Shown here: piece after piece, positions 1 through 14,728 of the stretch
How the letters are laid out: each line of letters opens with the position of its first letter
Position numbering within the stretch: the stretch's first letter is position 1
DNA from: Boothiomyces macroporosus
Taxonomy: Eukaryota > Chytridiomycota > Chytridiomycetes > Rhizophydiales > Terramycetaceae
Direction of reading: 5' to 3'
Assembly: GCA_027604185.1 (NCBI GenBank)
Contig: JADGKB010000200.1
Span: forward strand, 1-14,728
DNA length: 14,728 nt
Program-made: the position numbers and the translations under genes
The notes under the pieces: generated by a model
What the model saw: the letters and a program-made list of their open reading frames with translations, nothing else
Told to the model about the DNA's origin: nothing
Databases searched by the model: none

Positions 1-222
1 TGATTTCATAAAAGGATGTTGAGCCAAATCAAAGGTGACATTTGATAGGGAACTTGACCTGGAATCTAGACCACGACCTTGGGAAAGTTGGTGGATTTGA
101 GAGCAATGCATTGGGCGATAGCCGCTTGTTGGATTAAGCTTTGTAGCCCGCGCAAATACAAATAGAATGCAGTGTCATAACCTGAAACGCCACGCTGCCT
201 TGTGTGATGGAATGAGATGGGA

Positions 223-230
223 TATAAATA
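223..230 (+). promoter_or_regulatory. TATA box of the left repeat-borne gene
   Basis: TATAAATA lies 30 bp upstream of the ATG at 261, the distance expected for a TATA element followed by a very short 5' UTR. The same element is intact in the right arm. That both copies keep it suggests the repeat gene was, or is, transcribed. Confidence 0.55.
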
Positions 231-394
231 GATCGCTGGTTGGCACTTGCTCACCAATCAATGCTATCGATAATCCCATCTCTCCTCCTAGCCTCGTCTG
301 CGCTCGCTTCTGCCGACGCTGCTTTGTCCGATCTTGCTCTCGAAAAGCGTCAATCGCAGCTGTACCGACGAGAAGCTGCAAAGAAAAAGGCAGT

Positions 395-448
395 AATACC
401 AACAATACCAACAATGGCAACAATGGCAACAATGGCAACAATGGCAAC
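395..448 (+). repeat. Six-unit 9-nt minisatellite coding Asn-Gly/Thr-Asn
   Basis: Two units of AATACCAAC are followed by four units of AATGGCAAC, reading N-T-N and N-G-N in the middle frame of the broken gene. The right-arm copy has the same length but differs at four bases, three of which are AAT to AAC synonymous changes. Confidence 0.85.
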
Positions 449-882
449 ACTCCAGCAACCGTCGCCAATCCGCAAACCGGCAACTTGAACGGAAACGCTG
501 TTACCCTGTCGGCACTGGCAACTCTGCCGCGTGCCAAGCCAACTTGAACAACGCTACAGCCATCATCGGCACCATGCAGTCGCTGCTCACTGCGTCGCAG
601 AACCGTCCATGCAACGCAGCGGGAGGAGCAGCACTCGCGCAAAACCTGAACGGCCTCGCGACTTAAGCAGCAGTAGCGGCTATCGGCCCGCCATTGAACG
701 CCGCGGCAGCTTGCCAGAACTGCCTTGCTACCCAGCAGCAATTCGCCAATGTTCGCGTTGGATGGGCACAGTGCAAGGCACAAACCAGGACTGCTCAAAT
801 AAACGCTGGATCTCCAGACGGGACTCCAGGGAACGGAACGCCAGGTGCAGGATCAAATGGCCAAGTTCCTCAAGGACCACTC

Positions 883-906
883 AACGCTAATGGCAACGCT
901 AATGGT
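883..906 (+). repeat. 12-nt tandem duplication, present only in the left arm
   Basis: Two near-identical 12-nt units (AACGCTAATGGC and AACGCTAATGGT) stand in tandem. The right arm has a single unit. The length keeps the local N-A-N-G frame. Confidence 0.85.
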
Positions 907-984
907 ACTGCAAATGGTAATTCCAAGGTAACGGTAATGCAAAGAAAGCCAAGAAAGCCAAAAAGGGAAACCAATTTCATTGTA

Positions 985-990
985 AATAAA
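985..990 (+). terminator. AATAAA poly(A) signal at the inner edge of the left arm
   Basis: AATAAA overlaps the presumed TAA of the repeat gene, and homology between the two arms ends on its last base. The right-arm counterpart is TTTATT at 13755-13760. Confidence 0.5.
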
Positions 991-1246
991 GTTATTCCTT
1001 CAATCTAGTGTGTCCAGCGCCATTTGAAATTTATACCGAGAACGATAACACCTTCTTCGATTCCAATAAATGACTCTAAAGATTCAACTGATATGGATTC
1101 TGGGACTTTTTAGATTTTGGCCACGTATTCCTTCTCCAATTCAATTGTGTATTTTTTTGATTGGTTGAAACTGTGATCCAATGATTGGTTATCCATTTTG
1201 ACAGCTGCTTTAAAGAGACCAGAGTTTACACCAGAACAAGCTTAAT
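991..1246. other. Unique spacer between left arm and ARF A, with weak minus-strand ORF
   Basis: This 256-bp stretch must hold the ARF A promoter. It has two copies of GATTGGTT (1159-1166 and 1183-1190), CCAAT-type boxes also found upstream of ARF B. On the minus strand an ATG at 1196 opens a frame that runs to TAG at 1005-1007 but has one internal TAA (1110-1112). The second half is protein-like (acidic, then ending in FKWRWTH), but I recognise nothing. Part of its first half is just the CCAAT boxes read in reverse, which argues against it being a gene. Confidence 0.4.
1159..1190 (+). promoter_or_regulatory. Paired CCAAT boxes upstream of ARF A
   Basis: GATTGGTT occurs at 1159-1166 and 1183-1190, about 57-88 bp before the ARF A start. 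The reverse complement AACCAATC lies about 62 bp upstream of the minus-strand ARF B start, so the element is shared by the paralogues. CCAAT is the known target of the Hap/NF-Y complex; its use here is inferred. Confidence 0.45.
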
Positions 1247-12406: not shown

Positions 12407-12626
12407 GTTTAGATTTAGATTGAAAAACTGTTGCTTTTTTATCATTCGTTTTTGTGGCTTTTATTTTAACCAATCAAATTCAAACAAACGTGTAAGTGTA
12501 AATAACAGATTTTGCATGTACTGAATACTATTAATCACGATGATTTAGTTGGTATTGACAGATGACTTCCTACAGCAATTTATCCCATTTCGTTAATATG
12601 AGTCAGACATGGAAATAATCTTTTTA
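12407..12626. promoter_or_regulatory. 220-bp spacer upstream of ARF B with CCAAT box
   Basis: This spacer separates the BUB3 stop from ARF B on the minus strand. AACCAATC at 12468-12475 (GATTGGTT on the ARF strand) matches the boxes upstream of ARF A and lies about 62 bp from the start. I see no gene in it. Confidence 0.45.
12443..12445 (-). promoter_or_regulatory. Upstream in-frame ATG of ARF B
   Basis: The ATG opens [13 protein letters not shown] and, after the 19-nt intron is removed, continues in frame into MGLSISK. If the intron is retained the frame hits TAA within the intron. Whether it is transcribed depends on the start site, which cannot be read from the sequence. Confidence 0.45.
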
Positions 12627-12628
12627 TT
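12623..12628 (-). terminator. Poly(A) signal overlapping the BUB3 stop codon
   Basis: On the minus strand the stop TAA runs into TAAA, so that AATAAA starts at the second base of the stop codon. Confidence 0.5.
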
Positions 12629-13701
12629 ATCGCGTTTTGGCTTTAGGGGTGACATCTGCTTCACTAATTGCTTTGACAAACAACTGATCCGGAGGATGAC
12701 TATCATTAGCAAAAAGTACTCTTTCTCTCCCTCTTCAAATGTGTAACTGGAAGCAATCGCCAACAAGTCACCTGTGCAATTGAAGGACAATGAAGAGATG
12801 CTGGTAGGATAAGAAGCAAACTGTCTCAATCGCTTTTTCTACTATTAGCATAAAGTACTTGAGATCCATCCCAAATATTAACTACACCATCGCCACCACC
12901 AGTTGCAAAGGATTGCTGGTGTTTTGGATGGTACGCTAGAGCATTAACTGGATAAATATACTCTGCTTCACCTTTCTTTTGCCGGTGGCATTTGAATGAA
13001 AACTTTTGTGCAGCATCTTCTTCAGTACTGCCAAAGAAATCCACAGAGCATCGTCCTTCAATTGAGGCAGTAGCGTATCCTTTTCCATTAGGAATACAGG
13101 CAACTTTTCTAGTCATGAATTTAAGTGAGCTTTCTCTCTTCATTGGCTCTTTATCCAGATTTGAAATATCATATATATGAATCAAGCGTTTGGCTAATCC
13201 AACCACAAGGTGGTTATCCATTACATCTACAGAGTATACTTTTTCTGGCTGCTCTAATGTTTTCACCAATGCACCATTCTTCCAAACCTTTACTGAGCGA
13301 TCCCAACTACCAGTAATAATATAATCTATATTAATATTGTTAACCTTTAGAAGTAACTATAGTGCTGATTGCAGAATTATGATTTCCAATCTTGTTTGTC
13401 TTTAGACTAGCAATTTCAAACCTACATTAAAAACTATTACGAGTACAAAACTCCCTCTAATCCACCACTGTACGCAAATTTACCGTCTAATGAGAATGCC
13501 AAGGCTAACACTGGCGCAGGATGTTTTTGTTCAGCTTGTTTAATGTTATGATCCACTTGATATACTGATATGGTCTGGTTAATCCATTCGTACCTTGTCC
13601 CAAGAACTGACAGCGAGCACATGCGAATCTGTCGGACTGAATCGTATGCTGGTGATTCCATCCTTTGGCGGTTCATTCAATTCAATATCTCCTGCTGTCA
13701 T
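12627..13701 (-). CDS. BUB3: Mitotic checkpoint WD-repeat protein BUB3
   Basis: Spliced CDS complement(join(12627..12699,12720..12838,12859..13325,13345..13421,13441..13574,13594..13701)) gives 325 aa, close to the usual ~326. BUB3 is a seven-bladed propeller that binds phosphorylated KNL1 MELT motifs and brings BUB1/BUBR1 to kinetochores. It starts [20 protein letters not shown]. Blade motifs include [20 protein letters not shown] and [58 protein letters not shown] and [14 protein letters not shown] follow the BUB3/RAE1 pattern. The ending [20 protein letters not shown] matches BUB3 rather than RAE1. The five introns are 19 or 20 nt: 13575-13593, 13422-13440, 13326-13344, 12839-12858 and 12700-12719. 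The start codon is only 53 bp from the inverted repeat, so the BUB3 promoter must be short or lie within the repeat arm. Confidence 0.94.
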
Positions 13702-13754
13702 GATTTGCGATCGAAAAATGTTTTGGACAGGAAAATGTACATGCAGATATCTCT

Positions 13755-14469
13755 TTTATTTACAATGAAATTAGTTTCCCTTTTTAGTTTTCTTGGCTTT
13801 CTTTGCATTACCGTTACCTTGGCATTACCATTTGCAGTACCATTAGCGTTGAGTGGTCCTTGAGGAACTGGCCATTTGATCCTGCACCTGGCGTTCCGTT
13901 CCCTGGAGTCCCGTCTGGAGATCCAGCGTTTATTTGAGCAGTCCTGGTTTGTGCCTTGCACTGTGCCCATCCAACACGAACATTGGCGAATTGCTGCTGG
14001 GTAGCAAGGCAGTTCTGGCAAGCTGCCGCGGCGTTCAATGGAGGGCCGATAGCCGCTACTGCTGCTTAAGTCGCGAGGCCGTTCAGGTTTTGCGCGAGTG
14101 CTGCTCCTCCCGCTGCGTTGCATGGACGGTTCTGCGACGCAGTGAGCAGCGACTGCATGGTGCCGATGATGGCTGTAGCGTTGTTCAAGTTGGCTTGGCA
14201 CGCGGCAGAGTTGCCAGTGCCGACAGGGTAACAGCGTTTCCGTTCAAGTTGCCGGTTTGCGGATTGGCGACGGTTGCTGGAGTGTTGCTGTTGTTGCCGT
14301 TGTTGCCATTGTTGCCGTTGTTGGTATTGTTGGTATTACTGCCTTTTTCTTTGCAGCTTCTCGTCGGTACAGCTGCGATTGACGCTTTTCGAGAGCAAGA
14401 TCGGACAAAGCAGCGTCGGCAGAAGCGAGCGCAGACGAGGCTAGGGGGAGAGATGGGATTCGATAGCAT
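13755..14469 (-). pseudogene. Broken secreted Asn/Gly-rich protein gene, right copy
   Basis: This is the inverted duplicate of the left-arm gene, reading inward toward BUB3. It shares the three frameshifts and the internal TAA of the left copy. It adds a 2-nt loss seven codons upstream of where the signal peptide would end (start reads MLSNPISPP, so the hydrophobic core is lost), a 1-nt loss near 13869, and a C-to-T change that creates an earlier stop in the Lys-rich tail. Of the other coding differences, three AAT/AAC changes, one Pro and one Arg codon change are silent in the reconstructed frame. It looks less functional than the left copy. Confidence 0.6.
14284..14337 (-). repeat. 9-nt minisatellite, right copy
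   Basis: Six 9-nt units correspond to 395-448 in the left arm, with four base differences: three silent Asn codon changes and one Gly-to-Ser change. Confidence 0.8.
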
Positions 14470-14498
14470 TGATTGGTGAGCAAGTCCAACCAGCGATC

Positions 14499-14506
14499 TA
14501 TTTATA
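14499..14506 (-). promoter_or_regulatory. TATA box of the right repeat-borne gene
   Basis: TATTTATA on the plus strand reads TATAAATA on the minus strand, 29 bp upstream of the ATG at 14469. It matches the left-arm TATA box. Confidence 0.55.
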
Positions 14507-14728
14507 TCCCATCTCATTCCATCACACAAGGCAGCGTGGCGTTTCAGGTTATGACACTGCATTCTATTTGTATTTGCGCGGGCTACAGAGCTTAATCCAA
14601 CAAGCGGCTATCGCCCAATGCATTGCTCTCAAATCCACCAACTTTCCCAAGGTCGTGGTCTAGATTCCAGGTCAAGTTCCCTATCAAATGTCACCTTTGA
14701 TTTGGCTCAACATCCTTTTATGAAATCA

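What the first reader, a model, noticed from the sequence alone, without database searches (positions are those of the whole stretch)
1..14728. Ordinary housekeeping genes enclosed by ~1-kb, ~99% identical inverted arms that end at the same base
Seen directly: base 1 mirrors base 14728, the arms are 990 and 974 nt, and between them lie about ten intact genes, several normally essential and single-copy (RPS8, BUB3, PI4-kinase). Three readings are possible. It may be a real large TIR-bounded element carrying host genes, or a small linear chromosome or amplified linear molecule with identical ends. Or it may be a chromosome segment between two inverted copies of a dispersed repeat where the assembly stopped. 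The third is the most conservative. The exact coincidence of both ends and the absence of a transposase argue neither way alone. Joined end to end, the termini would make a perfect palindrome (TGAAATCATGATTTCA).
Basis: partly seen in the sequence, partly recalled or inferred. Interest (0 to 1): 0.75.

Follow-up and report, generated by a model that had tools for sequence, protein, structure and literature searches.

The report
Contig cut at dispersed pseudogene copies
This is most likely an ordinary stretch of a chytrid fungus chromosome whose assembly stopped, at the same base on both sides, inside two inverted copies of a dispersed broken gene, and not a separate mobile element or mini-chromosome.

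Summary
The inverted arms are real (1-990 and 13755-14728; 12 mismatches, 4 indels). The window is one whole contig (C200) of a 15.2-Mb, 216-contig assembly of the chytrid Boothiomyces macroporosus. Both ends stop on the same 55-mer. Contig C10 (234 kb) begins with exactly that 55-mer and runs on into other sequence. A third arm copy, on C29 (135 kb), runs out past arm base 1 into different sequence. Among 123 of 432 contig ends, one further pair overlaps by exactly 55 bases and four further groups stop on one shared base of a near-identical repeat. The shared terminus is therefore a de Bruijn (k=55) assembly signature; no contig under 10 kb is held. The arms are copies of a broken secreted-protein-like gene, distantly related to an open gene with three near-identical copies. 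BUB3-ARF order inside is conserved in Terramyces. Not excluded: the segment also exists flipped. Only one outer neighbour was found, and no reads were available. In passing: apparent 19-22-nt introns in the housekeeping genes.

The parts
1..990 (+). Left arm: dispersed ~1-kb repeat carrying a broken secreted-protein-like gene; ends with AATAAA
13755..14728 (-). Right arm: second copy of the same repeat, inverted
1..55 (-). Terminal 55-mer shared by both window ends and the start of contig C10 (inferred de Bruijn vertex)
14674..14728 (+). Same terminal 55-mer at the right end
261..980 (+). Broken gene of the left arm: signal-peptide-like start, Asn/Gly-rich repeat, apparent frameshifts, in-frame TAA found in all three copies; limits approximate
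   Evidence: frame reading by eye
13760..14469 (-). Broken gene of the right arm; shares with C29 a shifted frame soon after the ATG; limits approximate
   Evidence: frame reading by eye
1247..1824 (+). ARF GTPase (left), apparent 20-nt intron at 1389-1408
1878..2288 (+). Tctex-1 family (dynein light chain) fragment
4273..7045 (+). Pik1/PI4KB-type phosphatidylinositol 4-kinase; limits approximate
7355..9050 (-). TPR/DnaJ protein
9561..10304 (+). Ribosomal protein S8e (RPS8); limits approximate
11338..11709 (+). Prefoldin subunit
11810..12408 (-). ARF GTPase (right), apparent 20-nt intron at 12226-12245
12600..13701 (-). BUB3-type WD40 gene (ATG at 13701, 54 nt from the inner end of the right arm; 3' limit approximate); the public protein lies on a 14,728-bp contig

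Best explanation
The window is one short-read contig of the Boothiomyces macroporosus genome, a normal chromosomal segment. The arms are two of at least three copies of a dispersed ~1-kb repeat, a promoter-to-polyA copy of a dead secreted-protein-like gene. The assembler, working with 55-mers, could not decide which flank belongs to which copy, so it stopped at the last 55-mer common to both copies; that makes both ends stop at the same base. Shown: the copies, two different outer flanks (C10, C29), exact 55-base overlaps, and the same behaviour at other repeats. Inferred: the assembler type, that the second outer flank of the window lies on a sequence under 10 kb that is not held, and that the copies arose by ordinary dispersed duplication with gene conversion.
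For: Window = G000:C200:1-14728, the whole contig. A public B. macroporosus protein matching this BUB3 lies on a contig of 14,728 bp, and the contig length given for a C202 gene equals C202 (13,644). C10:1-55 equals the terminal 55-mer of both window ends and then differs; C29:1-922 is a third copy that passes arm base 1 into other sequence; C10 and C29 part exactly at arm base 1. In 123 of 432 contig ends the three exact dovetail overlaps longer than 25 nt are each exactly 55 nt (C10_s with each window end, C18_s with C27_s), and four other groups (C52/C113/C137, C13/C40, C195/C65, C57/C64) end on the same base of repeats 99.2-99.8% identical. Nine of the 123 ends were fetched because they or their contigs matched; of the other 114, eight show one of these two signs. 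C202 ends in a 62-bp match to one of its own tRNA-Met genes. The shortest contig, C216, is 10,024 bp. BUB3 followed by ARF is also the order in Terramyces sp. JEL0728 (one merged protein); its ARF part is 98% identical to the right ARF and 78% to the left one.
Against: Only one outer neighbour (C10) was found for two arms (4 matches from 4 candidates, of which two are the window itself; the same four places); the second is missing or collapsed. No reads or depth were available. The assembler is not named in anything I read; k=55 rests on three overlaps, two of them with this window. 106 of the 114 ends sampled without regard to a match showed neither sign, though their partners may lie among the 309 ends not sampled or on contigs under 10 kb. 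That two of three known copies lie on one contig in inverted orientation is left to chance.
Confidence: 0.92

Rival explanations
1. The 12.8-kb segment exists in both orientations (inversion polymorphism or flip by recombination between the inverted arms), so both arms truly join C10 in different chromosomes or cells.
For: Both ends carry the 55-mer that starts C10, and no second outer neighbour was found. Inverted repeats ~98% identical are suitable substrates (established knowledge). The copies look mosaic, which suggests exchange between them.
Against: A neighbour under 10 kb would be missing from the set and explains the single neighbour as well. The same coincidence of ends occurs at repeats on different contigs. 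No direct evidence for a second orientation.
Confidence: 0.05
2. A large TIR-bounded mobile element that carries host genes.
For: Two ~1-kb inverted arms with sharp inner limits, and an outer limit (arm base 1) at which C10 and C29 part.
Against: No transposase domain in the 28 of 105 window segments scanned. The arm is a gene copy with promoter-like start and polyA signal and has a third copy on another contig. BUB3-ARF order is conserved in Terramyces. The shared terminus is explained by k-mer ends.
Confidence: 0.02
3. A small linear chromosome or amplified linear molecule with identical ends.
For: The ends mirror each other exactly.
Against: C10 overlaps the end sequence by exactly 55 nt and continues for 234 kb. 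Four exact tandem TTAGGG units occur only on C128, not on C200 (weak, since just one contig of 216 shows them).
Confidence: 0.01

Closest known systems
Repeat-bounded contigs of de Bruijn short-read assemblers (SPAdes type, k=55; assembler behaviour recalled, not read in a paper here)
   Same: Contig ends on a k-mer shared by several repeat copies; neighbouring contigs overlap by exactly k bases
   Different: Here two copies lie on one contig in inverted orientation, so the contig looks like a TIR element; the assembler is inferred
Dispersed recent duplicates of secreted-protein genes, with pseudogenes
   Same: Near-identical copies at different places; an open, distantly related gene in three near-identical copies in the same genome (C52, C113, C137)
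   Different: The three arm copies share the same in-frame stop, so the family was copied or homogenised after it died
TIR DNA transposons
   Same: Inverted repeats flank a segment
   Different: No transposase found, a third arm copy elsewhere, ordinary genes inside with one conserved adjacency

Membership tests
Repeat-broken short-read contig | Contig end k-mer is shared with other contig ends | tested here: met
   exact 55-nt overlap of both window ends with C10
Repeat-broken short-read contig | Repeat copies continue into different flanks | tested here: met
   C29 and C10 part at arm base 1; the second outer flank of the window itself was not seen
Repeat-broken short-read contig | Other contigs of the assembly behave alike | tested here: met
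   four further groups of ends stop on one shared base and one further exact 55-nt dovetail, in 123 of 432 ends
Repeat-broken short-read contig | Raised read depth over arms, normal over interior | not testable with these tools
   no reads available
TIR DNA transposon | Encodes a transposase | tested here: not met
   28 of 105 window segments scanned against Pfam, no transposase domain; non-autonomous elements would also lack one
TIR DNA transposon | Target-site duplication outside both ends | not testable with these tools
   window ends are contig ends; only one outer flank (C10) is visible
TIR DNA transposon | Terminal repeats occur only as element ends | tested here: inconclusive
   a third copy stands on C29, but that contig begins inside the arm, so its inner side is unknown
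Linear minichromosome | Telomeres or free ends | tested here: not met
   no four-unit TTAGGG array on C200; the end sequence continues in C10
Dispersed pseudogene family | Several near-identical copies at different loci with shared lesions and an intact relative | tested here: met
   3 broken copies (two on C200, one on C29), each with one TAA; 3 open copies on C52, C113, C137, to which the broken ones are 39-41% identical

The most novel reading that the evidence does not exclude
The inverted arms recombine, so that the 12.8-kb block of essential genes exists in both orientations in the population or between homologous chromosomes; this would explain why both arms meet the single neighbour C10.
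Probability: 0.05. Interest if true: 0.4.

Novelty: not a real feature. Interest (0 to 1): 0.08.

Why it matters
It is a clear example of how a short-read assembly can make a piece of ordinary chromosome look like a giant transposon or linear plasmid: two inverted copies of a 1-kb repeat are trimmed at the same k-mer. Checking contig ends for exact k-base overlaps settles such cases quickly. 'Not a real feature' refers to the discrete element; the inverted repeat itself is real, and shows dead secreted-protein genes that were copied or homogenised recently in a chytrid genome.

Tried and rejected
Telomere ends: TTAGGG x4 found only on C128. Target-site duplication: not decidable with one outer flank; a look by eye at the C10 flank against the inner flanks gave nothing convincing. 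Rfam on the window at gathering threshold: no match. Pfam on the open relative (L042:668-1351), on one open piece of the arm gene (505-660) and on a homologue (P0003): no family. Whether the inverted ARF pair (1248-1824 and 11810-12386, 72-74%) is an extension of the arms: rejected, because BUB3 lies between arm and ARF on the right only and the identity is far lower. Second outer neighbour of the window: not found. Synteny at the C10 side: EMG1 of Boothiomyces sp. JEL0866 lies on a 162,040-bp contig, but its BUB3 was not among the 120 rows shown of 4210, so which arm joins C10 stays open. Papers: no held paper has both 'Boothiomyces macroporosus' and 'genome'; a DOI that I recalled for a chytrid genome paper was not held; of PMC7537106 I saw three passages; of every other paper only search listings with abstract starts; the Terramyces search returned nothing.

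Full report
Observation. The inverted arms are real. Arm L (1-990) and arm R (13755-14728, reversed) align over 990 columns with 962 matches, 12 mismatches and four gaps (1, 2, 1, 12 nt). GC in 500-base windows is about 0.48-0.56 in the arms and about 0.32-0.43 inside. Pfam hits in the interior are ARF, Tctex-1, PI4-kinase (Pik1 type), DnaJ/TPR, RPS8e, prefoldin, a second ARF and a WD40 protein that is BUB3-like; 28 of 105 stop-to-stop frames were scanned.

Where it comes from. The window is the complete contig C200 of a 15.2-Mb genome in 216 contigs. A search with an endonuclease III frame of contig C202 (13,644 bp) returned a protein at 100% identity and coverage, named Boothiomyces macroporosus, on a contig of 13,644 bp. 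A B. macroporosus protein matching the window's BUB3 is listed on a contig of 14,728 bp. Boothiomyces is a chytrid of Rhizophydiales, Terramycetaceae.

Why both ends stop at the same base. The arm occurs in four places: both window ends, C29:1-922 and C10:1-55. A pattern search for its outer 30 bases with up to 3 mismatches gives the same four; its inner end is found only at the two window arms, since C29 starts inside the arm. C10 starts with exactly the 55-mer at both window ends and then runs on into other sequence with an EMG1/NEP1 gene. C29 runs outward past arm base 1 into yet other sequence with an RNase T2 frame. C10 and C29 part exactly at arm base 1. This is the picture of a de Bruijn graph with k=55. 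I sampled 123 of the 432 contig ends. Exact dovetail overlaps of 20 nt or more were four: three of exactly 55 nt (C10_s with C200_s, C10_s with C200_e, C18_s with C27_s) and one of 25 nt (C2_e with C38_s, in repetitive sequence). Four other groups of ends stop at the same base of near-identical repeats: C52/C113/C137, C13/C40, C195/C65, C57/C64. Nine of the 123 ends (C200 both, C29 both, C10 both, C52, C113, C137) were fetched because they or their contigs matched. Of the other 114, six share a terminal base with another end, two form a 55-nt dovetail, and 106 show neither sign in this sample. The repeats are the open gene of the arm's family (C52 group), a GH14 gene (C13/C40), a DDE_3 transposase (C195/C65), and for C57/C64 a sequence that resembles a tyrosine recombinase by eye only, with no Pfam match. 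C202 ends in a 62-bp match to a tRNA-Met gene near its own start. The shortest contig is 10,024 bp, so a cut-off near 10 kb can explain why the second outer neighbour of the window is not held; that is inference.

What the arm is. It runs from 260 bp upstream of an ATG, through a TATA-like box (by eye), to AATAAA. The reading frame is broken: a signal-peptide-like start, an Asn/Gly repeat, apparent frameshifts (by eye) and an in-frame TAA seen in all three copies. A related gene is open over 228 aa in three near-identical copies on C52, C113 and C137; the broken copies match it at 39-41%. All six places lie within about 1.4 kb of a contig end (with the lengths). The open protein has four database hits at E <= 0.001, none with a named organism, and no Pfam family. 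Copy C29 equals R from arm base 11 to about 404 and equals L from 445 to 916. Within the part that all three cover, four events where L is the odd one lie between 141 and 286, and about seven where R is odd lie between 415 and 893. By hand, and noticed after the fact, this order has a chance of about 1 in 330 under random placement, so exchange between copies (gene conversion) is likely; it rests on three sequences, and the repeat around 400-445 can be aligned in more than one way.

Chromosomal setting. The order BUB3 then ARF on one strand is also found in Terramyces sp. JEL0728, in a single merged 502-aa protein; its ARF part is closer to the right ARF (98%, 96 residues) than to the left one (78%). 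This part of the window is therefore conserved chromosomal order. The Terramyces contig is 14,662 bp long, close to 14,728; its other genes could not be seen, and I take the likeness in length as coincidence, untested.

What stays open. Which arm joins C10, and what lies beyond the other. A segment that exists in both orientations would give the same graph; I hold that at 0.05.

Verdict. The inverted repeat is real and its cause ordinary; the coincidence of the ends is made by the assembler.

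Noticed in passing
window 1389-1408, 6760-6780, 10181-10200, 12226-12245, 13326-13344, 13422-13440; C10 (L006) 1054-1072 and 1184-1205: Apparent spliceosomal introns of only 19-22 nt (GT...AG with a TTAAT/CTAA-like branch, picked by eye) in ARF, PI4-kinase, RPS8, BUB3 and EMG1. 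In blocks that I assigned by strand, GT..AG stretches of 16-22 nt with a branch-like motif number 49 on coding strands against 13 on the opposite strands. The EMG1 reading agrees with the protein of Boothiomyces sp. JEL0866 and the BUB3 one with JEL0838; the others rest on domain continuity or frame only. No title on such introns in chytrids stood in the rows shown (20 of 2814; 25 of 88; 15 of 34).
   Followed up: partly
window 13326-13440: The public B. macroporosus BUB3 protein (P0126) lacks the exon lying between two apparent 19-nt introns; the JEL0838 and Terramyces proteins have it. The annotation seems to miss such tiny introns.
   Followed up: partly
C52:668-1351, C113:668-1351, C137:30997-31680 (-): Open 228-aa Asn-rich, secreted-looking gene in three near-identical copies, each at a contig end, with no Pfam family and four unnamed database hits.
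   Followed up: partly
window 1248-1824 and 11810-12386: Two ARF genes in inverted orientation, 72-74% identical in DNA, with an apparent 20-nt intron at the same position.
   Followed up: partly
L006 (C10) 269-480: Tandem array of ~32-bp units next to the arm junction on C10.
   Followed up: no
L047 (C128) 774-4180 and contig end: TTAGGG array near the contig end and, further in, a 1.7-kb tandem duplication at 97% identity.
   Followed up: no
arms in C200 and C29: Mosaic pattern of differences between the three arm copies suggests gene conversion between dead gene copies.
   Followed up: partly
P0155, Terramyces sp. JEL0728: The Terramyces contig that carries the merged BUB3-ARF protein is 14,662 bp long, close to the window's 14,728 bp; its other genes could not be seen.
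   Followed up: no
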